Origin: Archangium lipolyticum
GTDB lineage: Bacteria > Myxococcota > Myxococcia > Myxococcales > Myxococcaceae
NCBI RefSeq assembly: GCF_024623785.1
Contig: NZ_JANKBZ010000004.1
Location: 310,001-374,000, forward strand
DNA length: 64,000 bases
Reading direction: 5' to 3'
This document shows, in pieces, positions 9,664-43,022 of this stretch. A model generated the notes under the pieces. That model did not search any database. It saw only the letters and a list, made by a program, of their open reading frames with translations, and was not told the origin of the DNA. Numbering within the stretch: position 1 is the stretch's first letter; each line of letters begins with the position of its first letter. Made by a program: the position numbers and the translations under genes.

Positions 9664-12600
9664 ATGGCCGCACCTACCTCGTCGAATTTCCAGTTCCTCT
9701 CCGCTCACGACACGTTGCTGGTGGCCCTCGGCGCCCAGGCCGAGCGCTACTTCGTGGAGGACCCCAATACCAGCTTGATGAAGCTGCGGCAGTTCGGCGA
9801 GCGGTTGGCACAGCGGGCAGCGGCCCACCTGGGCATCCGATGGGACAACCTCCGGCAGTTCGAGCTCATCGAGAAGCTCGCCTCGCCCCCGTACAATGCG
9901 CTCTCGGCCGAGGTGCGGAGCATGCTCCACGAGCTGCGCAAGGGCGGCAACGACGCCGTTCATGACTTCACCGCCAGCCACGAAGAGGCGCTCCAACTCC
10001 TCAAGCTGGCCCGGCAGCTCGCCATCTGGTTCCACGGCACTTTTGGCAAGGTGTCAGGATTCAACCCCGGCCCCTTCATCCCCCCGCCGGACCCCGCCCA
10101 GGAGAACCGGGCCCTCGCCACCGAGTTGGAGCGCCTGCGCGGCGCGCTCAACGCCGCCCAACTCGATGCGGAGACGGCCCGCTCGGCCGCCGAGGCCGAG
10201 GCCCGCCGCCGGCTCGACGCCGAGGAGCGCGCCCGGCGGGATGCCGAGGATTGTGCTGTCTGGCAGCAACTCGCCGAGGAGGCCGAGAAGCGGCTCGTCG
10301 AGGAATTGAATACCCTCCAGACCCAAGCCGCCGCCCAGCCGCCGGAGGCCCTCAAGCTGCTGGCCGCCGCGTCCTACCAGGCGGGCGAGAAGCTGGAGCT
10401 GGACGAGGCCGAGACCCGCCGCCTCATCGATGCCCAGTTGCGCGAGGCCGGTTGGGAGGTGGACTCGGAGCGCCTCACCCACGAGAGCGGTGCCCGTCCC
10501 GTGGCTGGCCGCAACCTGGCCATTTCCGAGTGGCCCACCGGCAACGGCCGCGCCGATTACGTCCTCTTCGCCGGACTCCAGGCCGTGGCCGTGGTGGAGG
10601 CCAAGCGCTGGCGCACGGATGTCTCCGGTGCCTTGCCGCAGGCCCGCCGCTACGCCGAGTCCTTCGCCCCCACGGGGGACGCGACGCTCCCGGGTGGGCC
10701 CTGGGGCACCAGCCAACTGCCCTTCCTCTTCGCCACCAACGGGCGCCCCTACCTCAAGCAGTTGGAGACCAAGAGCGGCATCTGGTTCCACGACGTGCGC
10801 CGCCCAGCCAACCTGCCTCGTGCCCTCCCCGGCTGGTACTCGCCCCAGGGCCTGATGGATCTGCTGAAGCAGGACATCGAGGCGGCGGAGAAGCAGCTGC
10901 GCGAGCAGCCCGTGGATCTGCCCTCGCTGCGCCTGCGCGACTACCAGAAGAGCGCCATCCAGGCCATCGAGGACGCGCTCGCAACGGGCCGCCGCGCCTG
11001 CCTCGTGGCCATGGCCACCGGCACTGGCAAGACTCGCACCTGCCTGGGACTCGTCTACCGGCTGGTGAAGTCCAACCGCTTCCGCCGCATCCTCTTCGTC
11101 GTGGACCGCAGCGCCCTGGGCGACCAGGCCTCGGACACCTTCAAGACGGAGCTCATCGACGGCCACCAGACCTTCGCTACCATCTACGGCCTCAAGGAGA
11201 TGAAGGACATCTCCCCCGACGAGACCACCCGGCTGCACGTCGCCACGGTCCAGGGCCTGCTCAAGCGCGTCCTCTCCCCGTCCGAGGGGGAGCCGCCTCC
11301 CGCCGTCTCCCAGTACGACTGCATCGTCGTGGACGAGTGCCACCGCGGCTACACGCTCGACCGGGAGATGTCCGACGGGGAGCTCACCTTCCGTGACCAG
11401 GACGACTACCTCAGCAAGTACCGCCGTGTGCTGGAGTACTTCGACGCGGTGAAGATCGGCCTCACCGCCACCCCAGCCCTGCACACCCAGGAGATCTTCG
11501 GCTCCCCGGTGTTCCAGTACGGCTACCGGCAGGCCGTCATCGACGGATGGCTGGTGGACCACGAGCCCCCCATCCGCATCTCCACCGAGCGCAGCGAGGC
11601 TGGCATCACCTTCAAGGCTGGCGAGGAGGTGCCCACGCTCGTCACGGGTACCCAGTTGGAGCTGTTCCGCCTGCCGGATGAGATCAACTTCGAGGTGGAG
11701 GACTTCAACCGGAGCGTCATCACCGAGCCCTTCAACCGCGTGGTGGCCGGTGTGGTGGCCCAGTACGTGGACCCCCGGCTGGAAGGCAAGACGCTCGTCT
11801 TCTGCGTGAACGAGCAGCACGCGAACCTGATGGTGAAGGTGCTCCAGGAGGCGCTCGCGGCCCGCTATGGAGAGGTGGACAGCAACGCGGTGATGAAGAT
11901 CACCGGGAAGACGGACCGGGTGGACGAGCAGATCCGCCGGTACAAGAACGAGCGCCAGCCCTCCATCGCCGTGACGGTGGACCTGCTGACGACGGGCATC
12001 GACGTGCCCTCCATCTGCAACCTCGTCTTCGTGCGCCGGGTGAAGAGCCGCATCCTCTACGAGCAGATGCTGGGCCGCGCCACGCGGCTGTACGACTTCA
12101 AGACGGAAGGTACGGTCAAGGAGAGCTTCCGCATCTTCGACGCGGTGGACCTATACGAAACACTCCAGCCGTACTCCGCGATGAAGCCGGTGGTGGTGCA
12201 ACCGCACATCCCCTTCGCCCAGCTCGCGCAGGAGCTCCAGGGGCAGGCGGATGACGCGTGGAAGCGCGTGGTCCTGGACCAGCTCCTGGCGAAGCTCCAA
12301 CGCAAGAAGAAGGCGCTGCGTGAGCGTCACGCGGAGCTGTTCGAGGCCGCCGCGGGCGCGCCGGTCGACGAGGTGCTCGAGACGCTGAAGGCGGCCTCGC
12401 CCCGGGAGGCGGCGGAGTGGTTCACCGCGCACTCCCAGGTGGCGGAGCTGTTGGACCGGACCACGGGCAACGGAGACCAATCACGCGTCTACATCTCCGA
12501 GCACGCGGACGCGCTGAAGTCCCTGACCCGGGGCTATGGCGAGGGCCGTGAGCGCCCCGAGGACTACCTGGAGGGCTTCGGGCGGTTCGTGAAGGAGAAC

Positions 12601-13062
12601 GCGAACAAGCTGCCAGCGCTGCTGGTGGTGACACAACGCCCGCGCGAGCTGACGCGCGATGCACTCAAGGAGCTGAAGCTGGCGTTGGACACGGCGGGCT
12701 ACACCGAGCCGCAGCTCCAATCCGCGTGGCGGGAAGTGAAGAACGAGGACATCGCCGCCACCATCATCGGCTTCGTGCGGCAGCAGGCACTGGGCGAGCC
12801 GCTGGTGCCCTACGCGGAGCGGGTGGAGAGGGCGATGAAGAAGGTGCTGGCGAGCCGGCAGTGGGAACCACCGCAGAAGCAGTGGCTGCGGCGCATTGGC
12901 CAGCAACTGACGGCGAACGTGGTGCTGGACCGGCAGATCTTCGATTCAGCGCCGGCCTTCAAGGACCACGGAGGCTGGGCCGCGCTGGACAAGGTGATGG
13001 AAGGCAAGCTGGAGCAGGTGCTCGGAGAGCTGGCGGACAACGTCTGGAGCCCAGCTGCCTGA
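9664..13062 (+). CDS. hsdR: type I restriction enzyme R subunit
   Basis: The 1132-residue protein is the motor/nuclease subunit of a type I R-M complex. N-terminal region: DUF4145-like helices (about 20-125), then a long Ala/Glu/Arg coiled coil (about 145-225). The HSDR_N nuclease follows, with the PD-(D/E)XK core in ADYVLFAGLQAVAVVEAK. The SF2 helicase has Walker A MATGTGKTRT near residue 452, DEAD-box-type DECH near 555, TATPA, and a C-terminal helicase domain ending in MLGRATRLYD. The tail is helical and contacts M/S. It is first in an hsdR-hsdM-hsdS order. The 211-base gap to hsdM is unusually long and holds a repeat and a gene scrap. Confidence 0.96.
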   Translation: MAAPTSSNFQFLSAHDTLLVALGAQAERYFVEDPNTSLMKLRQFGERLAQRAAAHLGIRWDNLRQFELIEKLASPPYNALSAEVRSMLHELRKGGNDAVHDFTASHEEALQLLKLARQLAIWFHGTFGKVSGFNPGPFIPPPDPAQENRALATELERLRGALNAAQLDAETARSAAEAEARRRLDAEERARRDAEDCAVWQQLAEEAEKRLVEELNTLQTQAAAQPPEALKLLAAASYQAGEKLELDEAETRRLIDAQLREAGWEVDSERLTHESGARPVAGRNLAISEWPTGNGRADYVLFAGLQAVAVVEAKRWRTDVSGALPQARRYAESFAPTGDATLPGGPWGTSQLPFLFATNGRPYLKQLETKSGIWFHDVRRPANLPRALPGWYSPQGLMDLLKQDIEAAEKQLREQPVDLPSLRLRDYQKSAIQAIEDALATGRRACLVAMATGTGKTRTCLGLVYRLVKSNRFRRILFVVDRSALGDQASDTFKTELIDGHQTFATIYGLKEMKDISPDETTRLHVATVQGLLKRVLSPSEGEPPPAVSQYDCIVVDECHRGYTLDREMSDGELTFRDQDDYLSKYRRVLEYFDAVKIGLTATPALHTQEIFGSPVFQYGYRQAVIDGWLVDHEPPIRISTERSEAGITFKAGEEVPTLVTGTQLELFRLPDEINFEVEDFNRSVITEPFNRVVAGVVAQYVDPRLEGKTLVFCVNEQHANLMVKVLQEALAARYGEVDSNAVMKITGKTDRVDEQIRRYKNERQPSIAVTVDLLTTGIDVPSICNLVFVRRVKSRILYEQMLGRATRLYDFKTEGTVKESFRIFDAVDLYETLQPYSAMKPVVVQPHIPFAQLAQELQGQADDAWKRVVLDQLLAKLQRKKKALRERHAELFEAAAGAPVDEVLETLKAASPREAAEWFTAHSQVAELLDRTTGNGDQSRVYISEHADALKSLTRGYGEGRERPEDYLEGFGRFVKENANKLPALLVVTQRPRELTRDALKELKLALDTAGYTEPQLQSAWREVKNEDIAATIIGFVRQQALGEPLVPYAERVERAMKKVLASRQWEPPQKQWLRRIGQQLTANVVLDRQIFDSAPAFKDHGGWAALDKVMEGKLEQVLGELADNVWSPAA

Positions 13063-13064
13063 CC

Positions 13065-13099
13065 ACCCTCTCCCTCTGGGAGAGGGCCGGGGTGAGGGT
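13065..13099. repeat. REP-like palindromic element, copy 1
   Basis: CCCTCTCCCTCTGGGAGAGGG is followed by CCGGGGTGAGGG. The inner part is a near-perfect inverted repeat that can fold as a GC hairpin. It begins three bases after the hsdR stop and may act as a transcript stabiliser or weak terminator. Six copies occur in the window, all at gene ends or starts. Confidence 0.8.
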
Positions 13100-13104
13100 T
13101 TTGT

Positions 13105-13177
13105 CCTTGTTCGTCAACAACCCGGATGCGGTGTGAGTGCTCTCCTTGTAGCTGCCTTCCGCGTACCCGGAAGAGCA
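13105..13177 (+). pseudogene. remnant of a DUF3396 immunity gene in the hsdR-hsdM spacer
   Basis: These 73 bases align almost without gaps to 16933-17005 inside the intact DUF3396 gene. Both share the frame for LFVxNPDAV, followed by matching bases for LPSEYLEE. In this copy the frame ends at a TGA after NPDAV and further changes follow, so it cannot be functional. Only this central scrap remains; I see no homology beyond it on either side. It shows that immunity-type sequence once lay within, or was pasted into, the R-M operon. Confidence 0.75.
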
Positions 13178-13273
13178 TGAGGAGGGCCATGCGAGCGAGC
13201 CCGCCTCGGTTCACGCGGTGGCGCTTGGGAGACCCGCTTCCCTGGGGTACGAAGGGCTTCCGGAGAGAGGCCC

Positions 13274-14707
13274 ATGCAGACGACGAACGACATCGTCCAG
13301 AAGCTGTGGAACCTGTGCTCGCTGTTGCGCGAGGACGGCGTCACCTACCACCAGTACGTCACCGAGCTGACCTACCTGCTCTTCCTCAAGATGCTGAAGG
13401 AGACGGGGCGCGAGGACGTGCTGCCCAAGGGCCAGCGCTGGGATGACCTCGCCGGGAAGAGCGGCATGGAGCAGCTCGACTTCTACAAGCGCCTGCTGCT
13501 CAACCTGAGTGCCCTGGGCTCGCCGCGCGTGCGCGACATCTACACGGATGCCTCCACCACGCTGCGCCAGCCCAAGACGCTCACCGAGCTGGTCAGGCAC
13601 ATCGACGGGTTGCAGTGGTACAGCGAGACCCGCGAGCACATGGGCGACCTCTACGAGGGCCTGCTGGAGAAGAACGCCACCGAGGTGAAGAGCGGCGCGG
13701 GCCAGTACTTCACCCCCCGGCCCCTGGTGGAGTCCATGGTGGCGCTGGTGAAACCCCAGCCCGGCGAGCGCGTGCAGGACCCGGCGGCGGGTACCGGCGG
13801 CTTCCTCATCGCCGCGGACCGGTACGTGAAGGACCAGACGGACGACCTCTTCACCCTCCCAGAGAAGCAGCAGCGCTTTCAGAAGCACGAGGCCTTCTAC
13901 GGCATGGAGTTGGTGCCGGACACGCGCAAGCTGGCGCTGATGAATTTGATGCTCCACGACATCGAGGGTGACCTGCGACTGGGCGACACGCTCTCCCCAC
14001 AAGGAGCGGCGCTGCCTCCGGCGGACGTCATCCTCACCAACCCGCCGTTCGGGACGAAAAAGGGCGGCGGACGGCCCACGCGCGACGACTTCACCTTTCC
14101 CACCTCGAACAAGCAGCTGGCGTTTCTGGAGCACATTTATCGGGGACTGAAACCGGGCGGTCGGGCGGCGGTGGTGGTGCCGGACAACGTCCTTTTCGAG
14201 GACAACGTGGGCGCGGCCATCCGGGCGGACCTGATGGACAAGTGCGACCTGCACACTGTGCTGCGGCTACCCACGGGTATCTTCTACGCGCAAGGAGTGA
14301 AGACGAACGTGCTGTTCTTCACGCGCGGGCAGACGGACAAGGGGAACACGAAGGCGGTGTGGTTCTACGACCTGCGCGCCAACATGCCATCGTTCGGCAA
14401 GCGCACGCCGCTGACCCGCAAGCACTTCCGGGAGTTCGAGGAGGCATTCGGCGAGAACCCCCATGGGAAGAGCAAGCGAAAAGATCAGGGAGAGGAGGGA
14501 CGGCTCCGGAAATACACTCGCGATTATATTCGGGATCGCGGCGACAATCTGGATATTTCCTGGCTACGCGATGAGAGCCAGGGGAGCGCGAATGACCTGC
14601 CCCAGCCGGAGGTGATTGCAGTGGAACTTCGGGAACAGTTGCAGGTGGCCCTTGCGGAGATTGATGCACTCAGTGCACTGCTGGGACGTGAGGATGTCGG
14701 AACATGA
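13274..14707 (+). CDS. hsdM: type I DNA methyltransferase M subunit
   Basis: The 477-residue adenine methyltransferase modifies the sites chosen by HsdS. It has the N-terminal helical HsdM_N domain (TNDIVQKLWNLCSLLREDG, YLLFLKMLKE). The N6_Mtase domain follows, with the SAM site DPAAGTGGF near residue 170 and the catalytic NPPF near 256. A GQYFTPRPLVE motif precedes it, typical of the family. SD GGAGAGAGG lies 4 bases before the ATG. It overlaps hsdS by ATGA, so M and S are translationally coupled while R has its own distance. Full length for the family. Confidence 0.96.
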   Translation: MQTTNDIVQKLWNLCSLLREDGVTYHQYVTELTYLLFLKMLKETGREDVLPKGQRWDDLAGKSGMEQLDFYKRLLLNLSALGSPRVRDIYTDASTTLRQPKTLTELVRHIDGLQWYSETREHMGDLYEGLLEKNATEVKSGAGQYFTPRPLVESMVALVKPQPGERVQDPAAGTGGFLIAADRYVKDQTDDLFTLPEKQQRFQKHEAFYGMELVPDTRKLALMNLMLHDIEGDLRLGDTLSPQGAALPPADVILTNPPFGTKKGGGRPTRDDFTFPTSNKQLAFLEHIYRGLKPGGRAAVVVPDNVLFEDNVGAAIRADLMDKCDLHTVLRLPTGIFYAQGVKTNVLFFTRGQTDKGNTKAVWFYDLRANMPSFGKRTPLTRKHFREFEEAFGENPHGKSKRKDQGEEGRLRKYTRDYIRDRGDNLDISWLRDESQGSANDLPQPEVIAVELREQLQVALAEIDALSALLGREDVGT

Positions 14708-16212
14708 AAAGCAGTTACATCCCGCCCGGCTGGAGCGAAGCCCCTATCAGCGACCTTTGTCATCTCATCAATGGGCGAGCATTCAAACCCACCGAATGGG
14801 CAAAATCAGGGTTACCCATCGTCCGTATCCAAAACCTCAATGAGCCAGACAGCTCATTCAACTATTGCGACAAAGAGGTCGAAGAAAAATTCATCATTGA
14901 TGCTGGCGAGCTTTTGTTTGCTTGGTCCGGCACACCGGGCACCTCATTCGGAGCACACATCTGGAAGGGACCGAGGGCTGTACTCAATCAGCACATTTTC
15001 CGGGTCCACATAGAGGAGCGCCATCTCAACAAAGAGTTCTTCCGCCTTGCTCTCAATCAGCGTCTCAACACCTTCATTGAAAAAGCCCATGGCGGGGTCG
15101 GGTTGGGGCACATCACCAAGGGCAAGTTCGAAGACACGACTCTCTATATTCCACCTCTTAACGAGCAGCGCCGCATCGTCGCCAAGCTTGAATCTCTGCT
15201 GGCCCGAAGCCACCGCGCCAAAGAAGCTCTGGACGCCATCCCGACTCTGCTAGAACGATTCCGGCAGTCGGTGCTCGCAGCAGCTTTCCGTGGCGACCTC
15301 ACTGCGGACTGGCGCGCGAAACATCCTGACATCGAGCCCGCGTCCAAATTGCTGGAGCGCATCCGCGCCGAGCGCCGCCGCAATTGGGAAGAAGCAGAGT
15401 TGAAGAAGATGCAGTCAAAGGGGAAAGCCCCAAGAGATGATGCATGGAAAGACAAGTACGAGGAACCAAGCACACCAGACACCCGCCTACTGCCCGAGAT
15501 ACCTCAAGGATGGTCATGGGTAAGGCTGCCTGAGCTTGGAGAGGTGGCTCGTGGGAAATCCAAGCACCGGCCCAGAAACGACCCACGGCTATTCGATGGC
15601 CCATATCCATTCATCCAAACGGGAGATGTTGCCCAATCGAACGGTCGTATCGACTCGGCATCACAAAGCTACAGCGAACTTGGCTTAGCTCAAAGCCGTC
15701 TATTCCCCAAGGGAACTGTGTGCATCACCATCGCAGCCAACATTGCTGACACAGCAGTGCTTGGCATTGACGCCTGTTTTCCGGATAGCGTCGTTGGCGT
15801 CATTACTGAAAGCAGGCTCGTGTCCCCAGAATATCTTGAGCTTTTCATTCGAACCATCAAGTCGGACCTCGCCGATTTTGCACCGGCAACGGCACAAAAG
15901 AACATCAATCTGGAGGTTCTATCCGAAGTAGCCATTCCAATTCCTCCACCAGAAGAAAGAGTCGAGATAGAAGGGCTCCTAAACTCCGCACTAGGGCACA
16001 TCAACGCACTCGAAAGGACTCACACATACGCAGTGCGCATGATGTCATCACTGGAAAGCTCTATGCTCAGTAAGGCGTTTCGCGGCGAACTCGTCCCGCA
16101 GGACCCGAACGACGAGCCCGCCTCGGTTCTCTTGGAGCGCATTCGCGCCGAGCGCGAAGCCACCGCCAGCTCCGTGCCCAAGCGGTCCCGGGGCCGCCGT
16201 CCCGCCGCGTAA
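14704..16212 (+). CDS. hsdS: type I restriction-modification specificity subunit
   Basis: The 502-residue protein has two target-recognition domains separated by helical spacers. TRD1 lies about 5-165 and ends in IYIPPLNEQRRIVAKLESLL. TRD2 lies about 265-440 and ends in IPIPPPEERVEIEGLL. Each spacer ends with the same motif, (S/A)xLLERIRAER, at about residues 214-224 and 474-484, as expected for a pseudo-dimeric S subunit. The gene is visibly AT-richer than its neighbours, especially in the TRDs, a usual sign of exchanged specificity domains. ATGA overlap with hsdM. The recognition sequence cannot be predicted. Confidence 0.95.
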   Translation: MKSSYIPPGWSEAPISDLCHLINGRAFKPTEWAKSGLPIVRIQNLNEPDSSFNYCDKEVEEKFIIDAGELLFAWSGTPGTSFGAHIWKGPRAVLNQHIFRVHIEERHLNKEFFRLALNQRLNTFIEKAHGGVGLGHITKGKFEDTTLYIPPLNEQRRIVAKLESLLARSHRAKEALDAIPTLLERFRQSVLAAAFRGDLTADWRAKHPDIEPASKLLERIRAERRRNWEEAELKKMQSKGKAPRDDAWKDKYEEPSTPDTRLLPEIPQGWSWVRLPELGEVARGKSKHRPRNDPRLFDGPYPFIQTGDVAQSNGRIDSASQSYSELGLAQSRLFPKGTVCITIAANIADTAVLGIDACFPDSVVGVITESRLVSPEYLELFIRTIKSDLADFAPATAQKNINLEVLSEVAIPIPPPEERVEIEGLLNSALGHINALERTHTYAVRMMSSLESSMLSKAFRGELVPQDPNDEPASVLLERIRAEREATASSVPKRSRGRRPAA

Positions 16213-16243: not shown

Positions 16244-16543
16244 ATGAGCAAGCAGGATTGGCGCCCTCAACTGACCACCATCGAGGATCCCATCGCCGAG
16301 GACCGCTGGTCCTACACCGCGAGCGATGGGAGTACGAAGGTTTCGAGAATCCTCGTCGGACGCCCTCAGCCACTCCCCGGAGAGGAAGACCGGGCCTGGT
16401 ACTGTCCTCTCGCCATCGAGGGATATCTCCCCGGCATCAAGTGCGTCATGGGGGTTGGGCCCGTCGATGCCCTCATGAACGCCATGTCGCTCGTGAGAAG
16501 GTTGTTCGAGGAGCAGTCCAACGTCACCCCTCATGAAGGGTGA
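16244..16543 (+). CDS. small DUF6968-like hypothetical protein
   Basis: The 99-residue protein lies 31 bases after hsdS. It is compact and acidic, with the pattern of small proteins seen beside polymorphic toxins: an RILVGRPQP strand, WYCPLAIEGYLPGIKC, and a C-terminal helix GVGPVDALMNAMSLVRRLFEE. I assign it to the DUF6968 type with moderate confidence. The same C-terminal piece recurs as a decayed copy at 17563-17629 before the VRR-Nuc-like toxin gene, which ties it to that cassette. A third role in the toxin/immunity system is likely but unproven. Confidence 0.65.
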   Translation: MSKQDWRPQLTTIEDPIAEDRWSYTASDGSTKVSRILVGRPQPLPGEEDRAWYCPLAIEGYLPGIKCVMGVGPVDALMNAMSLVRRLFEEQSNVTPHEG

Positions 16544-16557
16544 ACAATACGCGCCTG

Positions 16558-16623
16558 AAGGTAGGGCCCAACCTCGTGGCCCCCATATGGAAGATCATCC
16601 GATGGTTCGCATCCCCCAGATAA
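16558..16623 (+). pseudogene. 3' remnant of a VRR-Nuc-like toxin gene
   Basis: Read from 16558, 21 codons (KVGPNLVAPIWKIIRWFASP and an Arg, then TAA at 16621) match the last residues of the intact toxin at 17630-18460 (EVAPNIVTPIRGIIRWLASL and a final Glu). As in the intact cassette, the DUF3396 ATG lies inside this tail, with the same ATCATCCGATGG context. The rest of the toxin is gone; a DUF6968-like gene sits just upstream. Confidence 0.75.
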
Positions 16624-17492
16624 GGCTCCACGCGGAGCATGGCGCGCTCGTGGTGCGCGAGGGCTTCAGCATCTGCTTCTACATACGCCGCTCCCACAGG
16701 GAGATTGCCCCGGCGGTCATGCACTCACTGGATACGTACCTGCACGCGGTGGGTCCGCGGGCGCTCGGCTGGTACGTGGACCCAGAGGGAGACTGGCAGG
16801 AGCTCGATGCCACGGGTTGGACACACGTCCGCGACAAGCTTCACAAGAGCAGCCCCATCCTCAAGTTGAGGGATACTCCGAGCGGCGCTGGCCAGTACGA
16901 GCTCAATTACCACGGCAAGTCACTCGACGCGCCCTTGTTCGTCGACAACCCGGATGCGGTGTGTGCTCTCTCCTTCTGGCTGCCTTCCGAGTACCTGGAA
17001 GAGCACGGACCCGCGCACGTTCGTGAGCTGGCGCTGGAGCTGGCCGCACCACTGCCCATCAACTCCGGGCACGCGGGCCCCGCCTTCAACTTCCTGTTCA
17101 TGCCCCCGGAGTTCCGTTCGTTGTGCTTCCGCTACCCGGGAATGGACGTCTGCTCGCCGATGGATGTGTCCTGGAGCATCGGCACGCGCGTACGAGGACC
17201 CCATTGGCTGACCTTCCTGGGTCAGCCGGTGCTCGGTGAGGTGGGGGGCTCGGCTGGCCTGCGCACCCGCCTTTCCTCTCCGGGCATCACCGTCCAGGAG
17301 ATGGATGGCGAGCGAGCCGTCGTCACCCTGGGGGAATCGCCCGAGGCGGGTGACACCGAACAGGGCCGGGACCTGCCCCTCCACCGTGAACTGGCACGCG
17401 TCCTGGAGCCCTGGCTCTACCAGCAACGAATCCCCTGGAGTGGCTTCACCCAGGAGGACATGCGCAGGTGGGAGCGCCGCTTTCTCGACTGA
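16602..17492 (+). CDS. DUF3396 (type VI immunity-like) protein, toxin-less copy
   Basis: The 296-residue protein starts at MVRIPQIRL, the same position as its paralogue at 18439. DUF3396 proteins such as Salmonella TsiV3 bind and block VRR-Nuc toxins. Features: SICFYIRRSHREIAPAV, a tryptophan-rich WYVDPEGDWQELD stretch, FWLPSEYLEEHGP followed by VRELALELAAPLP, and a C-terminal third (TFLGQPVLGEVGG onward) identical to the paralogue. The N-terminal two-thirds differ from that paralogue. The partner toxin has been reduced to the 21-codon remnant it overlaps. It is therefore probably an orphan immunity protein giving protection against a toxin this strain no longer makes. Confidence 0.87.
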   Translation: MVRIPQIRLHAEHGALVVREGFSICFYIRRSHREIAPAVMHSLDTYLHAVGPRALGWYVDPEGDWQELDATGWTHVRDKLHKSSPILKLRDTPSGAGQYELNYHGKSLDAPLFVDNPDAVCALSFWLPSEYLEEHGPAHVRELALELAAPLPINSGHAGPAFNFLFMPPEFRSLCFRYPGMDVCSPMDVSWSIGTRVRGPHWLTFLGQPVLGEVGGSAGLRTRLSSPGITVQEMDGERAVVTLGESPEAGDTEQGRDLPLHRELARVLEPWLYQQRIPWSGFTQEDMRRWERRFLD

Positions 17493-17629: not shown

Positions 17630-18460
17630 ATGACATCACCCGTAAACAACCTGCTGCGACAAGCGGTGCTCACCGCAAGTTCCCTGCTCACGGCCTGCGG
17701 CTCGGCGGCCTACACCATCGACTCCGCCACGAGCGCCTGCCGCCAGAACCCGGCCTACTGTGCCCACGTAGCGGGTGAGGAGACCATCGTCCCCACCCTC
17801 CGGAGCGCCGCCCAGGAGACCGTGGTGTCCACCGTCAAAGGGGGCACGGAGGCAGCCTCCGTGGTGGCCACGCTCAAAGTGCTCTTCGCCAAGAAGCAAC
17901 CTGACATAGAGAAAGCCCTGGTGGAGTGCGTCGATTGGGCGGACACAGCGGTCAACCGCAAGCGTTTCGGAGGCAACGACCCCACACGAACCCAATGCCA
18001 GGAAGAGGTGGAGAAGGACCCTTGTGGGAAGCCGGTGACCCGGGCCATGCAACTGGGCACCGAAAAGCACCGTCTGGCCATCCAGTGCACGAAGGAGAAG
18101 CTGGACGCATTGATTCCGGGGCGCTTCAGCCTGGAACAACGCTACCGCTACGATGAGCAGACGGGACAGAAGCAACTGGTCAGCCCCGAGGAGGAACGCG
18201 CTCTCAAGCAGCAGGGATGCAGTGGCGCACTCGAAGGCACACTCGTTCCCGATGTCGTCATCCACTCGGGAAATCCGCTCCAAGCCCTGGCCGTCTACGA
18301 CTTCAAGTTTCCCTGCCCCATTACCAATCGACCCAGGTGGAAACCCTACCCCCACCTGGGCGTGAATCAGGGAGATATGTACCGCAAGCTCCTCGAGGTA
18401 GCGCCCAATATCGTGACACCCATACGGGGCATCATCCGATGGCTCGCATCCCTCGAATAA
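17630..18460 (+). CDS. lipoprotein with C-terminal VRR-Nuc-like nuclease, SitA-like toxin candidate
   Basis: The 276-residue protein has a type II signal with lipobox LTAC (Cys23). A Cys-containing helical middle follows (SACRQNPAYC, VECVDWAD, IQCTKEKL). The C-terminal domain (about 165-265) has PD-(D/E)XK features of the VRR-Nuc type: PDVVI with D208, VYDFKF with D224 and K226, and QGDMY with Q247. The homologue at 42210-43022 shares the whole architecture. The immunity gene begins 22 bases before its stop. Lipidation plus nuclease plus immunity is the SitA/SitI layout used in outer-membrane exchange. The start at 17630 excludes the upstream DUF6968 scrap. Nuclease activity is inferred, not proven. 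Confidence 0.78.
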   Translation: MTSPVNNLLRQAVLTASSLLTACGSAAYTIDSATSACRQNPAYCAHVAGEETIVPTLRSAAQETVVSTVKGGTEAASVVATLKVLFAKKQPDIEKALVECVDWADTAVNRKRFGGNDPTRTQCQEEVEKDPCGKPVTRAMQLGTEKHRLAIQCTKEKLDALIPGRFSLEQRYRYDEQTGQKQLVSPEEERALKQQGCSGALEGTLVPDVVIHSGNPLQALAVYDFKFPCPITNRPRWKPYPHLGVNQGDMYRKLLEVAPNIVTPIRGIIRWLASLE

Positions 18461-19344
18461 GGCTCTACGCCAAGAATGATGTGCTCCTGGCTCGTGAGGC
18501 CCTGAGCATCTGCTTCTACATGCGCCGCTCTCATCGTGAGATCGCACAGGCAGTGCTGTGCTCATTGGAGGTGTACCTACGAGCGGTGGGTCCACAAGCG
18601 CTCTGCTGGTATGGAGACGACCAGGGCGATTGGCAGGAGTTGGATACCGCGGGCTGGGCCCACACCCGGCACGAGCTGCGCGAGAGCCCCGGTCTCATCG
18701 TCGAGTTGGCGGATACACCGAGTGGTGCGGGCCAATACGCCTTCGAGTATTACGGCAAGCCGCTCGACTCTCCCTTGTTCAGCAACGACCCGGGCGCGGT
18801 GTGCGCGGTCTCGTTCTGGTTGCCTCCCGAGTACCTGGAGAAGCACGGTCCCGCGCACGTTCGTGAGCTGGCGTTGGAGCTGGCCGCGCCGCTGCCCTTC
18901 AACTCCGGCCATGCCAGCCTCGCCATCAATGCCCTGACGCAACTCGTGGGAGTGTCAGCGGAGCTCCGGCACGGGTGCTTCCGCCACCCGGGAATGGACA
19001 TGCCCGGTCTCGGAGACCTCTCGATGAACCTCGGCACGCGAGTGAAGGGAGCCTACTGGCTGACCTTCCTGGGTCAGCCGGTGCTCGGTGAGGTGGGGGG
19101 CTCGGCTGGCCTGCGCACCCGCCTTTCCTCTCCGGGCATCACCGTCCAGGAGATGGATGGCGAGCGAGCCGTCGTCACCCTGGGGGAATCGCCCGAGGCG
19201 GGTGACACCGAACAGGGCCGGGACCTGCCCCTCCACCGTGAACTGGCACGCGTCCTGGAGCCCTGGCTCTACCAGCAACGAATCCCCTGGAGTGGCTTCA
19301 CCCAGGAGGACATGCGCAGGTGGGAGCGCCGCTTTCTCGACTGA
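18439..19344 (+). CDS. DUF3396 (type VI immunity-like) protein paired with the upstream toxin
   Basis: The 301-residue protein starts at MARIPRIRL inside the toxin 3' end, so the two are translationally coupled. Same features as the other DUF3396 copies: SICFYMRRSHREIAQAV, WYGDDQGDWQELD, FWLPPEYLEKHGP, then VRELALELAAPLP. Residues about 208-301 are encoded by the 359-bp repeat and are identical to the copy at 16602. The divergent N-terminal part is the likely determinant of toxin specificity. Predicted role: cytoplasmic antitoxin that binds the VRR-Nuc-like domain of its partner. Confidence 0.87.
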   Translation: MARIPRIRLYAKNDVLLAREALSICFYMRRSHREIAQAVLCSLEVYLRAVGPQALCWYGDDQGDWQELDTAGWAHTRHELRESPGLIVELADTPSGAGQYAFEYYGKPLDSPLFSNDPGAVCAVSFWLPPEYLEKHGPAHVRELALELAAPLPFNSGHASLAINALTQLVGVSAELRHGCFRHPGMDMPGLGDLSMNLGTRVKGAYWLTFLGQPVLGEVGGSAGLRTRLSSPGITVQEMDGERAVVTLGESPEAGDTEQGRDLPLHRELARVLEPWLYQQRIPWSGFTQEDMRRWERRFLD

Positions 19345-20033: not shown

Positions 20034-20171
20034 TCAGCGCGCAGTGCAGTGCCGGGAGAGGCAGCGGCACCATCAAGAGAAGGCACGAGGATTCAGGGCT
20101 GTGCCCCTAACAGGTTGGCCATCCAGCAACCTATCCTTCAGGGTTGTCGCACCTGGGGAAAGGCCAGCGTC

Positions 20172-21995
20172 ATGGCGAAGGAGTACTGGAGTCCTGGGAC
20201 GGGGGAGGGCGGCGGTACGCAGTTCGAGACACGGCGGAACTCGCGCGACCGGCCCTGGTGGGCCTCCGGAGTGCTGGCGCTGGTGATTCTCGGGCTGCAG
20301 GCGGCGTGTGCCTCGGGCTACCCCATGGGAGGGACGCTGGCAGGCACCGCGCGCCACTGGGGAAGTGCTCAGCGGGTGAGTCCAGGTGAGGAGGAGCGCG
20401 TTGACGGAGCCCTGGTGGTGGCCGTGGCGAGGCCCAACGCGCCCAGCGAGGACGTAGAGGTTGCTGACGTCGGCGCGGAGGACCGCGAAGGTACTGGGGT
20501 GGAGGAAGTGAGCGCGGCCGAAAGCGACAAGGCGGCGAGGCGGCCTCGGTACCTGTCCAGCCGCGTGAGCAGGGTGGAAGAGGAGGAGGTACTGGAGAGG
20601 GAGGGCGTTGGATGGCCGGATGGAGTGGGCGACGGGAGACCGTTCGAGGTGCCTATGAGCCTCGACTACTTCCAGGGCTTCCTCGTGCAGGCCGGGGTGC
20701 CCAGCACCGCAGTGCCCAGGGACGGGCGCACGCTGTCGCCCCAACAGGCGTTGGAGCTGGTGCCGTACCTGCTCGCCACACCGGTGACGTTGGGCAGTTT
20801 CGGGCCGCGCCGCATGGCGGCGCACGTGCTCATGGAAGTGGCCACGGGTGGGGAGTTGGTGACGCGGGACGAGCTCCACGCGCGCATGCGGCGCTTCTCG
20901 CGGCTGCTGGTGCTGCGACCTGACGGCTATCTGGTGAAGGTCACCTCGGGGGAGGCAGTCCAGAAGGCCGGGCAGGTGGTGCTCGCCGAGGATGGGACGC
21001 TACGGGCTGGCCGGTTCGAGGTGGGTCCCTTCTACGCCATCGACGGCGAGCGCCTCTTTCCGGTGGATGAAAAGCTCGAGGTGCCGAAGGGAGCCCGCCC
21101 CACGGGCATCTACGAGCCGGACGACAACCCCGGGCTCGCGGTGGCCGAGGGCGCAGTGCTGGCGATGGTGGACATGGTGGAAGGCCTCTACCGGCTCGTC
21201 TTCTACACGGGCGAGACGCTCGAGGGGCTGGCCCAGCTCCCAGGCGCGGTGAGGCAGCTCTACGAGAGCTCGCCACAGCTGTGGGAGGAGTTCCGCCACA
21301 AGCCCCATGCGGAGAAGGTGCGGACCGTCTCCCGGCTCGTGACGGGCATGGTCCTGACGGTGGGCACCTCGGGAGCGGGTGCCGCGAAGGCAGCATCGTG
21401 GGGAGGGAAGCTCGGGAGCGTGGCCGTGCCGCTGCTTTCGCTTTCGGGGGAAGGACTCCTGGCGGTGCGCCTGGTGGCGGTCCCCGTGGGTGGAGCCGTC
21501 GCAGTGGCGGGCAACGCGCTGAGTGCCACCTACGTCCTGCACATGGCCAACACGAGTGCTCAGGGGGCAGGAGGAGGTGGTGGGTGGCCTCCGGTAGGAG
21601 GGCCCGGGCAGTGGGTGGAGGACACCTCCAGCATGTCCGAGCAGGCCCGGGACTATCAGGCCCAGGTGACGGGCGCCCCCAAGCGGTGGGCCTACAAGGT
21701 CTGTCGGGACGGTGAGTGCGTGAACTACGACGGTTACGAGCCAAAGACGGGCACCCTGCTCGAGGCCAAGGCGCGCGAATATGCGAAGTGGTTCGACGAG
21801 AAGCTCGACCCTAGATTCAACTACGAGGGACTGGAAGACATGGTCGCGCAAGCAGAGCGGCAGCTTCGGGTGGCTGGCGGGAGACCGCTTCGCTGGCACG
21901 TCGCGGAGCCGCGTATGGTGGCCGTGCTCAGGAAGTGGTTCGACTTGAATGACCTTCAGGCAGTCGAAGTTGTCTACACGCAGCCCATACGGTGA
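20172..21995 (+). CDS. lipoprotein polymorphic toxin with Tox-REase-5 domain
   Basis: The 607-residue protein has a hydrophobic signal (about 30-45) ending at LQAAC (Cys46), so it is a predicted lipoprotein. A long middle region follows, with an acidic Glu-rich stretch (about 75-150) and Gly/Ala/Val-rich hydrophobic segments (about 390-480). The C-terminal about 100 residues fit the Tox-REase-5 restriction-fold toxin: YDGYEPKTGTLLEAKAREY gives D520 and E531-x-K533, then QAERQL and LRWHVAEP. The next gene, 12 bases on, encodes Imm52, the immunity family known to accompany Tox-REase-5. It is a good SitA-type candidate, with delivery by outer-membrane exchange inferred from the lipoprotein signal. 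Confidence 0.85.
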   Translation: MAKEYWSPGTGEGGGTQFETRRNSRDRPWWASGVLALVILGLQAACASGYPMGGTLAGTARHWGSAQRVSPGEEERVDGALVVAVARPNAPSEDVEVADVGAEDREGTGVEEVSAAESDKAARRPRYLSSRVSRVEEEEVLEREGVGWPDGVGDGRPFEVPMSLDYFQGFLVQAGVPSTAVPRDGRTLSPQQALELVPYLLATPVTLGSFGPRRMAAHVLMEVATGGELVTRDELHARMRRFSRLLVLRPDGYLVKVTSGEAVQKAGQVVLAEDGTLRAGRFEVGPFYAIDGERLFPVDEKLEVPKGARPTGIYEPDDNPGLAVAEGAVLAMVDMVEGLYRLVFYTGETLEGLAQLPGAVRQLYESSPQLWEEFRHKPHAEKVRTVSRLVTGMVLTVGTSGAGAAKAASWGGKLGSVAVPLLSLSGEGLLAVRLVAVPVGGAVAVAGNALSATYVLHMANTSAQGAGGGGGWPPVGGPGQWVEDTSSMSEQARDYQAQVTGAPKRWAYKVCRDGECVNYDGYEPKTGTLLEAKAREYAKWFDEKLDPRFNYEGLEDMVAQAERQLRVAGGRPLRWHVAEPRMVAVLRKWFDLNDLQAVEVVYTQPIR

Positions 21996-22007
21996 GGGTC
22001 ACCGCGC

Positions 22008-22742
22008 ATGAGTGAATCCTATGGAGCTGGAGCCTATTGGGGGCGGCGTCCGGAGGGAGCTGAGGCGTGCGCTCGACGCGCGGAGACATTCTTCCACCTC
22101 CTCGCGGAGTGTCACCCGAGCTATGCCCGGTGGTACGAGAAGAACAACTCCACGCGCAAGGCGCTGCAACTCGGCTTTGAACCCACCCGAGAGACCTTCG
22201 AGCGCTTCTTTGGACGAGAGAAGTACCAGAGCGGAAATGACGGGTTCCGCTTCAGTGCCTGGACAGGGCACGTCGAGCAGGACCAGGGCGGCGCGGTCTC
22301 GGTCCGTTGTGGGTCGAAGGCCGAGTTTTCGTCCAATGTGGTGCGCGTGCAATTCCCGCATGAGGAATCCGGTCACGAGCGCATGCTCACGATGCCGGTG
22401 CTCGCGGGCATCATGCGCGCCATGGCCGTGGCCTGGGAGCCGGACTGGGCTCTCGCGACAGCGGATGGACTGTGGGAGCAACTCTCCGGAGGCAGTCGGA
22501 TCGGCTGCTTCCTCGGGTGGATGACGTACTTCTCGCGCGAGCGTGGGGAGGTGCCCCCCCTGCCCGAGCCAGTGCGTGTGGAGCCGGTAGGCGACAAGGG
22601 TACGCTCGTCATTTTGACTCCCGAGCGGCTCATGCCGAGCAATCCCGAGCATGTGGCGCTCGCCTGGCGCGTTCAGAGGCTGCTCGAGGAACGAGGGCTG
22701 CTCAGACGGGTGGTCGAGCCGCCCCCTGTGGCGCGTCCATGA
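22008..22742 (+). CDS. Imm52-family immunity protein
   Basis: The 244-residue protein follows the toxin by 12 bases. The N-terminal signature fits Imm52: AYWGRRPEGAEACARRAETF, then FHLLAECHPSYARWYEKN. It continues with VRCGSKAEFSSNVVRVQFP and AVAWEPDWALATADGLW, and ends in a Pro/Arg tail. No signal peptide, so it is cytoplasmic, where it would neutralise the partner nuclease. Pairing with Tox-REase-5 is established for this family; the match of these two genes rests on adjacency. Confidence 0.86.
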   Translation: MSESYGAGAYWGRRPEGAEACARRAETFFHLLAECHPSYARWYEKNNSTRKALQLGFEPTRETFERFFGREKYQSGNDGFRFSAWTGHVEQDQGGAVSVRCGSKAEFSSNVVRVQFPHEESGHERMLTMPVLAGIMRAMAVAWEPDWALATADGLWEQLSGGSRIGCFLGWMTYFSRERGEVPPLPEPVRVEPVGDKGTLVILTPERLMPSNPEHVALAWRVQRLLEERGLLRRVVEPPPVARP

Positions 22743-41301: not shown

Positions 41302-42213
41302 TCAGTCGAGGAACCGGCGCTCCCAGCGGCGCCTGTCCTCCGGGCGGAATCGGCTCTCGGGGAGGGGCCCCTCGTAGAACCAGGGCTCCAGCACGCGCGC
41401 CAGCTCGCGGTAGGCGGGCAGCGTACGGCCCTGCTCGGTATCACCCGCGTCCGGCCACTCCCCGAGCGTCACCAGCACCCGGTCGCCGTCCAACTCCTGC
41501 ACCATGGTGCCCGGTGAGCGCAGCCGCGCGCGCAATGCCGCCGCGCCGCCCAGCTCTCCCAACACCGGCTGGCCCAGGAACGTCAGCCACGAGGGGCCGC
41601 GCACCCGCGTGCCGATGTTGTACGAGTAGAGCGCCACGTCGGGGAGATCCATGCCCGGGTAGCGGAAGCACAGGTCCTGGATCTCCTTCGTTACCCCCAC
41701 CACATCGTTCGGACCCAGGAAGGCCATGCCCCCGTTACCGGAGCAGAAAGGCAGAGGGGCCGCCAGCTCCAGCGCCAGTGCTCGCACCCGCTCGGGTCCC
41801 TGCTCCTCCAGGTACTCCGTGGGCAACCAGAACGACGCCACGCAGGCGTGCTCCTTCGCCCCCCTCCACTCGGGGTTGTCGAGGTGCCTGCCGTAGTATT
41901 CGAAGTGGAACCTCTCCGGACCGCCCGTTCTGACGTCTTCCAGGATGACGCGAGGCCAGGGGTCCTCCAACAGATTGCGCCGGTTGAGCGCCCAGCCTGC
42001 CTCATCGAGAACCTGATCATCGCCTTCATCGTCTACATAAAAGCCAAGATTCTCCATCCCTACCGCGTCCAGGTAGGTGTCCATCGAGCGCATCACCGCC
42101 CGCGCCATCTGCGTGTGTGGCCGGCGCATGTAGAAGTCCAGCCGCAAGCCCTCATATATCCAGTATCCGCGGGACTCTGTACGGAGGCGGATTCTCGGGT
42201 AACGCTCACTCAC
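41302..42213 (-). CDS. DUF3396 (type VI immunity-like) protein of the second toxin cassette
   Basis: The 303-residue protein starts at GTG 42213, overlapping the toxin stop by GTGA. It shares the signature of the other two copies: LDFYMRRPHTQMARAVMRSM, YVDDEGDDQVLDEAGW, FWLPTEYLEEQGP, then VRALALELAAPLP, and ends DRRRWERRFLD, near-identical to the others. Sequence is clearly more distant than the other pair. Predicted to neutralise the VRR-Nuc-like domain of the gene just upstream. It lies about 22 kb from the related copies. Confidence 0.87.
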   Translation of the reverse strand: MSERYPRIRLRTESRGYWIYEGLRLDFYMRRPHTQMARAVMRSMDTYLDAVGMENLGFYVDDEGDDQVLDEAGWALNRRNLLEDPWPRVILEDVRTGGPERFHFEYYGRHLDNPEWRGAKEHACVASFWLPTEYLEEQGPERVRALALELAAPLPFCSGNGGMAFLGPNDVVGVTKEIQDLCFRYPGMDLPDVALYSYNIGTRVRGPSWLTFLGQPVLGELGGAAALRARLRSPGTMVQELDGDRVLVTLGEWPDAGDTEQGRTLPAYRELARVLEPWFYEGPLPESRFRPEDRRRWERRFLD

Positions 42214-43022
42214 CAGAAGGCTCCTTTTCGAGGGCCGATGAGCTCGACCTCGGGTCCGAAGGCCTCCTTATAGATATCGCCCTGCGATCTACCCGCATAA
42301 CGGTGTCCCGGAGGATACGTCCTCCATCTGGGCCGCTCATCGAAGTTCACACAACGGAACTTGAAGTCATAGACGGCCCGCACCTGGAGCGGGTCTCCGG
42401 TGTGGATGACCACATCGGGTTCCAACGTTCCCTTCAGCGCCTCGCCTCCCTGACGCAGCAGCGCCTCCTTCTCCGAAGGACTGACGAGCGACTTCTCTCC
42501 CGTCTCCCTTTTGAACCGGTAGCGCTGCTTGAAGCTGAACTTCAGGCCCATTTCCCTCAGCTTCACCTCGGCGCACTTCATGGCCACCTCGTGCATCTCC
42601 AGCCCGAGCCGCATGGCCCACGTCACGCTCCTCCCCTTCGTGTCCACGGTCATCTTGTTGCACTCTCCCGCGTTGGGCACCGGCCCCTCGAAGGTCCCCG
42701 TGTGACTCAGCAGTACCTCCGTGCGAGCCAGGTCCGCGCATTGTTCCAACGCGCTCTGGATGGAGCTTTGCGTCACATCGCCCTGAGCAGATGCCACCAC
42801 GCCCGCGGAAGCCACGACCGTGCCCACCGTCTGCACCGGTTCGGTGGCGACCTCCCTTCCCGTCGCGGTGGCGCAGTAGACGGGATTCACCCTGCACCGG
42901 GCACTCAGTGAATCCTGGGCGTAGTGACTCGGAACACCTCGGACAGGCGTGCTCGCACAGGCTCCGAGCAGCAGACAGCCAGCAAGCAACCATCCCAGTC
43001 GATGCATGAGCCGGTCCGGCAT
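42210..43022 (-). CDS. lipoprotein with C-terminal VRR-Nuc-like nuclease, SitA-like toxin candidate
   Basis: The 270-residue protein starts at ATG 43022 with GGAGGGGAG directly before. Lipobox LLGAC (Cys22). The architecture matches the toxin at 17630: SARCRVNPVYC, LEQCADLAR, WAMRLGLEMHEVAMKCAEVK, FSFKQRYRFKRETGEKSLVS. The C-terminal site has EPDVVI with D203, VYDFKF with D219 and K221, and QGDIY with Q247. The two toxins align over their whole length, but the last about 25 residues differ. The GTGA overlap couples it to the DUF3396 gene. Best read as a polymorphic lipoprotein nuclease toxin. Confidence 0.8.
   Translation of the reverse strand: MPDRLMHRLGWLLAGCLLLGACASTPVRGVPSHYAQDSLSARCRVNPVYCATATGREVATEPVQTVGTVVASAGVVASAQGDVTQSSIQSALEQCADLARTEVLLSHTGTFEGPVPNAGECNKMTVDTKGRSVTWAMRLGLEMHEVAMKCAEVKLREMGLKFSFKQRYRFKRETGEKSLVSPSEKEALLRQGGEALKGTLEPDVVIHTGDPLQVRAVYDFKFRCVNFDERPRWRTYPPGHRYAGRSQGDIYKEAFGPEVELIGPRKGAFW

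What the first reader, a model, noticed from the sequence alone, without database searches (positions are those of the whole stretch)
20172..22742. Lipoprotein Tox-REase-5 toxin with Imm52 partner next to the VRR-Nuc cassettes
The toxin has a LQAAC lipobox, a 450-residue carrier region and a C-terminal restriction-fold nuclease (E531-x-K533). The next gene matches Imm52, the expected partner. This makes three nuclease-toxin loci in 26 kb, all with lipoprotein signals and none with type VI or two-partner carrier domains. It supports a shared delivery route such as outer-membrane exchange. The carrier region is quite different from that of the VRR-Nuc toxins, so two carrier families may use one route.
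Basis: partly seen in the sequence, partly recalled or inferred. Interest (0 to 1): 0.7.

Follow-up and report, generated by a model that had tools for sequence, protein, structure and literature searches.

The report
SitA3-like lipoprotein nuclease toxin with immunity
This gene pair is a myxobacterial self/non-self weapon: an outer-membrane lipoprotein carrying a DNA-cutting tip, plus the protein that protects its owner, and it belongs to a divergent branch of a toxin family (SitA3) already known to pass between neighbouring cells when their outer membranes fuse.

Summary
Window 20172-21995 encodes a 607-residue protein with a lipidation cysteine (C46), a carrier (about 149-462) and a Tox-REase-5 nuclease tip. 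Imm52 follows 12 bases later. The genome holds 16 Imm52 matches and about 20 carrier matches. Paralogous carriers are 82-90% identical, while toxins and immunity proteins diverge together to about 50%. Related carriers also bear other nucleases (WHH/colicin-DNase, LHH).

The carrier is homologous (37% identity, E=4e-47) to the escort domain of a protein with the anatomy published for SitA3-Mx. Published SitA3-Mf1 bears this same toxin fold and kills in a traA-dependent way without SitB. The genome encodes TraA and TraB. In this bacterial family, TraB occurs in 62 of 64 carrier-positive genomes and 0 of 32 others; this is one clade, so not independent events.

It is therefore most likely an outer-membrane-exchange toxin of the SitA3 kind. 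Its lineage lies outside the published 51.8% divergence of SitA3 escort domains, so it may enter cells by another route. Delivery and killing are untested. That the VRR-Nuc neighbours share this route is not shown. A leader cassette is shared by toxins with unrelated carriers.

The parts
20113..20171 (+). Conserved upstream DNA of the leader cassette, with ribosome site GGGGAAAGG
   Evidence: DNA homology to other toxin genes starts at 20113; alignment of 13 leaders
20172..21995 (+). Toxin gene, 607 aa, SitA3-type lipoprotein toxin
20172..20306 (+). Leader: extended n-region (SPGTGEGGGTQ), hydrophobic stretch, lipobox up to residue 45
   Evidence: hydrophobic segment 29-52; codons 2-14 nearly invariant among own-genome copies
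20307..20309 (+). Lipidation cysteine C46; +2 is A and +7 is M, so the published rule for outer-membrane lipoproteins (no K at +2, no A at +7) is satisfied
   Evidence: rule quoted in PMC5562445
20310..20615 (+). Variable acidic linker, residues 47-148
   Evidence: only 31-76% identical between paralogues whose carriers are 82-90% identical
20616..21557 (+). Carrier / escort domain, residues 149-462
   Evidence: homologous to SitA3 escort domain
21420..21527 (+). Hydrophobic stretch at the end of the carrier, residues 417-452
21648..21911 (+). Tox-REase-5 nuclease domain, residues 493-580; [E/D]531-x-K533 conserved in paralogues
22008..22742 (+). Imm52 immunity gene, 244 aa, 12 bases after the toxin stop

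Best explanation
The pair is a sitAI-type kin-discrimination cassette. The toxin is exported, lipidated at C46 and sorted to the outer membrane (inferred from the signal and the published sorting rule). When two cells with matching TraA receptors touch, TraAB fuse their outer membranes and the lipoprotein moves across with other cargo (inferred from homology to SitA3 and the presence of traAB). In the recipient the carrier acts as an escort domain: after release from the lipid anchor it takes the tip through the inner membrane using a host protein. The Tox-REase-5 tip then cuts nucleic acid in the cytoplasm unless Imm52 is there to bind it. Shown here: anatomy, escort-domain homology, carrier re-use with other nucleases, joint divergence of toxin and immunity, and TraAB in the same genome. 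Inferred: lipidation, transfer, entry and killing. The carrier branch is more divergent than published SitA3 escorts, so its entry protein is probably different.
For: Domains at both ends. TseT fold. The carrier is homologous to the escort domain of L121, which has the published SitA3-Mx anatomy: an upstream 500-aa ORF with a type I signal (SitB-like), a lipobox, and carrier plus CdiA_C tRNase in one ORF. BLASTP gives E=4e-47. The escort of L121 is 52.0% identical over 369 aa to Tox-REase-5 homologue L123a, matching the published 51.8% over about 375 aa for SitA3-Mx against SitA3-Mf1. PMC8546572 gives SitA3-Mf1 a PF15648 tip; PMC5562445 shows that sitAI3-Mf1, without sitB, outcompetes in a traA-dependent way. 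TraA 1100 bits (cut-off 750) and TraB 977 bits (cut-off 700) lie in one overlapping operon on the same contig. Carrier in 64 of 96 family genomes; TraB orthologue in 62 of those 64 and 0 of 32 others. Carrier 82-90% against toxin 46-69% and Imm52 49-76% between closest paralogues. Related carriers bear colicin-DNase/WHH and LHH tips. No carrier hit in phages, plasmids or viral contigs.
Against: No experiment. The lipobox has Q at -3. The carrier is only 34-37% identical to proven SitA3 escorts, and the tree puts it in a separate lineage. The carrier/TraB match follows one bacterial clade and could be shared ancestry. G023 has the carrier but neither TraA nor TraB was found (draft of 800 contigs). 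The genomes holding L121 and L123a are unnamed, so their identity with the published proteins rests on anatomy and the identity figure.
Confidence: 0.85

Rival explanations
1. The toxin is delivered by a type VI secretion system, as its tip and immunity relatives TseT/TsiT are in Pseudomonas.
For: Tox-REase-5 with Imm52 is a known type VI effector pair (7dym). Myxobacteria use type VI secretion in kin discrimination (PMC12077131).
Against: N-terminal lipoprotein signal; no PAAR, MIX or other type VI domain in the protein and none in the neighbouring genes scanned. The carrier is homologous to an OME escort domain, not to type VI carriers.
Confidence: 0.06
2. The protein sits in the outer membrane but is released in vesicles or shown on the surface, and reaches targets by contact without TraAB.
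For: Lipoproteins can leave in vesicles (general knowledge). Rhs surface toxins act in myxobacteria independently of OME and type VI (PMC10433427).
Against: Proven SitA3 relatives need TraA in both partners (PMC5562445). The only carrier homologue found outside the family, in a MAG record, has no lipobox, and the one out-of-family genome with a carrier has no TraA.
Confidence: 0.06
3. The locus is a decaying or resident toxin-antitoxin pair with no cell-to-cell role.
For: Truncated and frameshifted copies of leader and carrier exist elsewhere in the genome (L029, L034, L037, L143).
Against: This copy is intact. The paralogue pattern (constant carrier, toxin and immunity diverging together) is that of delivered polymorphic toxins. 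An export signal makes no sense for a resident toxin.
Confidence: 0.03

Closest known systems
SitA3 family (SitA3-Mx = MXAN_1899; SitA3-Mf1 of Myxococcus fulvus HW-1), Vassallo et al. 2017 and 2021
   Same: Lipoprotein, homologous escort domain, modular C-terminal nucleases including Tox-REase-5 (PF15648 in SitA3-Mf1), immunity gene directly downstream, genome with traAB
   Different: Escort only 34-37% identical (published SitA3 escorts are at least 51.8% alike); separate lineage in the tree; longer acidic linker; leader cassette with GEGGGTQ; no sitB next door (as also in sitAI3-Mf1)
TseT-TsiT of Pseudomonas aeruginosa (type VI effector and immunity, PDB 7dym, 9oz0)
   Same: Tox-REase-5 nuclease fold and Imm52 partner
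   Different: No lipoprotein signal or escort domain in TseT (established knowledge); different delivery machine
MXAN_0050/MXAN_0049 type VI nuclease pair
   Same: Nuclease toxin and immunity used in kin discrimination
   Different: AHH nuclease with Imm11 and a PAAR carrier gene (PMC12077181); different domain families

Membership tests
SitA3 (OME-delivered lipoprotein toxins) | N-terminal escort domain homologous to SitA3-Mx and SitA3-Mf1 | tested here: met
   37% identity over 313 aa, E=4e-47 to L121, which has the SitA3-Mx anatomy; carrier matrix 34-38%.
SitA3 (OME-delivered lipoprotein toxins) | Type II (lipoprotein) signal without K at +2 or A at +7 | tested here: met
   C46 invariant in paralogues; +2 A, +7 M. 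Q at -3 is unusual.
SitA3 (OME-delivered lipoprotein toxins) | C-terminal nuclease, exchangeable between family members | tested here: met
   Tox-REase-5 here; colicin-DNase/WHH and LHH on paralogous carriers; CdiA_C on L121
SitA3 (OME-delivered lipoprotein toxins) | Immunity gene directly downstream | tested here: met
   Imm52, 12 bases downstream
SitA3 (OME-delivered lipoprotein toxins) | Genome carries traA and traB | tested here: met
   NF033759 1100 bits, NF033763 977 bits
SitA3 (OME-delivered lipoprotein toxins) | TraA-dependent transfer and killing | not testable with these tools
   Needs mixed cultures
Tox-REase-5 / Imm52 toxin-immunity pair | Scores over curated cut-offs in both genes, with catalytic D...[E/D]-x-K | tested here: met
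   66.6 and 242.8 bits against 25; D520 and E531-x-K533; TseT fold
Type VI effector | PAAR, MIX or another type VI carrier or adaptor in the protein or next to it | tested here: not met
   Pfam and NCBIfam scans of the protein and the nearest genes show none

The most novel reading that the evidence does not exclude
The carrier lineage of this toxin (Archangium/Cystobacter type, 34-37% identical to SitA3) is in function a separate OME escort family that enters cells through its own inner-membrane protein. Toxins with unrelated escorts draw on one shared leader cassette (about 60 bases upstream plus the signal), conserved at codon level, so leader, escort and tip are three separately exchanged modules.
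Probability: 0.35. Interest if true: 0.5.

Novelty: new member of a known kind. Interest (0 to 1): 0.36.

Why it matters
SitA escorts that differ by 48% already use different entry routes (PMC8546572). A related lineage differing by about 65% is a ready set of natural variants for finding what an escort recognises in the inner membrane, which is an open question. The genome carries about 20 such carriers, so it also shows how one delivery module is kept constant while toxin and immunity diverge.

Tried and rejected
SitA7 was my first guess, because it is described as a non-modular DNase; rejected, as the carrier matches SitA3 and is modular here. MXAN_0050/0049 as the closest relative: rejected, it is AHH with Imm11. 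TraA by the Pfam PA14 model: four hits, none TraA; found through its own Cys-rich repeat model instead. Phage, plasmid and viral collections: no carrier. PDB matches all fall on the toxin, so nothing can be said on the escort fold. The second model, without an alignment, failed (pLDDT 39.5). RNA structure in the leader: no signal above shuffles. Promoter scan: nothing useful. Vassallo and Wall 2019, which defines the six families, is not in the library, so I could not check whether this lineage is already listed there.

Full report
Observation. The toxin ORF starts at ATG 20172, behind a clear ribosome site, and ends at 21995. Pfam finds Tox-REase-5 at residues 493-580 (E=3.1e-18) and Imm52 over the whole next gene, 22008-22742 (E=4.7e-72). 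E531 and K533 are as stated. The predicted toxin domain superposes on the solved TseT nuclease (7dym_A, Z 16.5, rmsd 2.2 over 127 residues), and the TseT partner TsiT is itself annotated as Imm52. The lipobox cysteine is C46. The residue at -3 is Q, which usual patterns do not favour, but the cysteine is invariant across paralogues, some of which have canonical boxes.

The genome. The window is C4:310001-374000 of a 12.6 Mb genome. Its nearest named relatives in the collection are Archangium violaceum and A. lansinium. It has 16 Imm52 matches and 30 places that match some part of the toxin; the carrier profile alone finds 20. The closest five paralogues share 82-90% of the carrier but only 46-69% of the toxin, and their Imm52 proteins differ to the same degree (49-76%). 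One tandem pair (L023) has carriers identical in DNA with toxins only 61% identical. A carrier 75% identical to this one bears a colicin-DNase/WHH tip, and a more distant one an LHH tip with a SUKH immunity protein. This is the pattern of delivered polymorphic toxins.

The SitA test. The published facts are: SitA3-Mx (MXAN_1899) has a sitB gene upstream, a lipobox and a CdiA-type tRNase tip (PF18451). SitA3-Mf1 has a PF15648 tip, lacks sitB and outcompetes M. xanthus in a traA-dependent way. Their escorts are 51.8% identical over about 375 residues and enter cells by different routes (PMC5562445, PMC8546572). A profile of the own-genome carriers found, in two 9.2-9.3 Mb genomes, one ORF holding both the carrier and PF18451. 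In L121 this ORF has a lipobox and an upstream 500-residue ORF with a type I signal. Its escort is 52.0% identical over 369 residues to that of L123a, a homologue with a Tox-REase-5 tip. The window's carrier aligns with L121 at 37% identity, E=4e-47. So the carrier is of the SitA3 kind. In the tree it falls in a supported lineage (99/97) apart from the clade with both SitA3 forms (100/99); the own genome also holds members of that classical clade (C14, C59) and of a third small lineage (C23).

Machinery. TraA (1100 bits, cut-off 750) and TraB (977 bits, cut-off 700) overlap by four bases in one operon on the same contig, as in M. xanthus (PMC3325183). Among 96 genomes of the family, 64 have the carrier. 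A TraB orthologue is in 62 of these and in none of the other 32. The two exceptions are fragmented drafts; one of them has a partial TraA. These genera form one group, so this is consistency, not independent proof. In the rest of the phylum one genome has a carrier, and it has no TraA. A carrier homologue in a groundwater MAG record (L069, perhaps the same organism) starts without a lipobox.

Mechanism. Most likely: lipidation and outer-membrane sorting, transfer by TraAB-driven exchange, escort-led passage through the inner membrane (a hydrophobic stretch at residues 417-452 may take part), then cutting of nucleic acid unless Imm52 is present. Only the anatomy, homology and genome context are shown. 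The rivals (type VI delivery, TraAB-free delivery, a resident pair) have little support.

Neighbours. Their carriers are unrelated to this one, Pfam does not call VRR-Nuc in them, and no evidence here links them to outer-membrane exchange.

Leader cassette. From 20113 to about 20360 the DNA is 76-85% identical to that in front of toxins with unrelated escorts, including two with DUF6310 tips. Among the own-genome copies, codons 2-14 are almost always the same codon where the residue is the same (two variable positions excepted), against 0.64 in the carrier. The 20-base core occurs 12 times in the genome with at most two mismatches, and 0 times reversed. No RNA fold stands out. Its purpose is unknown; a module for expression and export that recombines as a unit is the simplest reading.

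Verdict. A sound, largely correct finding of a known kind, with an escort lineage beyond the published range of SitA3.

Noticed in passing
window 20113-20360; L033, L036, L038, L039, L143, L149: A leader cassette (about 60 bases upstream plus signal) is shared at DNA level by toxin genes with unrelated carriers; codons 2-14 are nearly invariant at synonymous sites. Twelve copies of the 20-base core in the genome.
   Followed up: partly
window 16533-17492 and 18436-19344 (+): Two TsiV immunity genes flank the lipoprotein nuclease gene at about 17630-18460; the last roughly 90 residues of the two are identical, which points to recent duplication or gene conversion.
   Followed up: no
window 42210-43022 (-) with 41302-42213 (-): Second short lipoprotein with a PD...D-x-K motif and TsiV partner; the genome has 12 places matching the first one, mostly over the same region, so this family does not look modular.
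   Followed up: partly
window 9664-16212: Genes with the look of a type I restriction-modification system (helicase-type subunit, methyltransferase, specificity subunit, read from translations) directly upstream of the toxin loci.
   Followed up: no
L023 (G000:C15:52000-64000): Tandem toxin-immunity cassettes with DNA-identical carriers but toxins 61% and immunity proteins 73% identical; a similar tandem in L123.
   Followed up: yes
L069, 3674-5299 (+): A carrier homologue in a Deltaproteobacteria groundwater MAG has no lipoprotein signal; the one out-of-family genome found with a carrier (G192) has no TraA. Possibly an older, non-exchanged form.
   Followed up: partly
L033 1134-2986 (-): DUF6310 lipoprotein followed by a DUF5953 gene: a likely unnamed toxin-immunity pair using the same leader.
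   Followed up: partly
L030, L031: Tox-REase-5 plus Imm52 on a lipoprotein with an unrelated N-terminal carrier, so this tip is used by at least two lipoprotein carriers in one genome.
   Followed up: partly
L029, L034, L037: Truncated or frameshifted leftovers of leader and carrier, signs of turnover of this toxin family.
   Followed up: no
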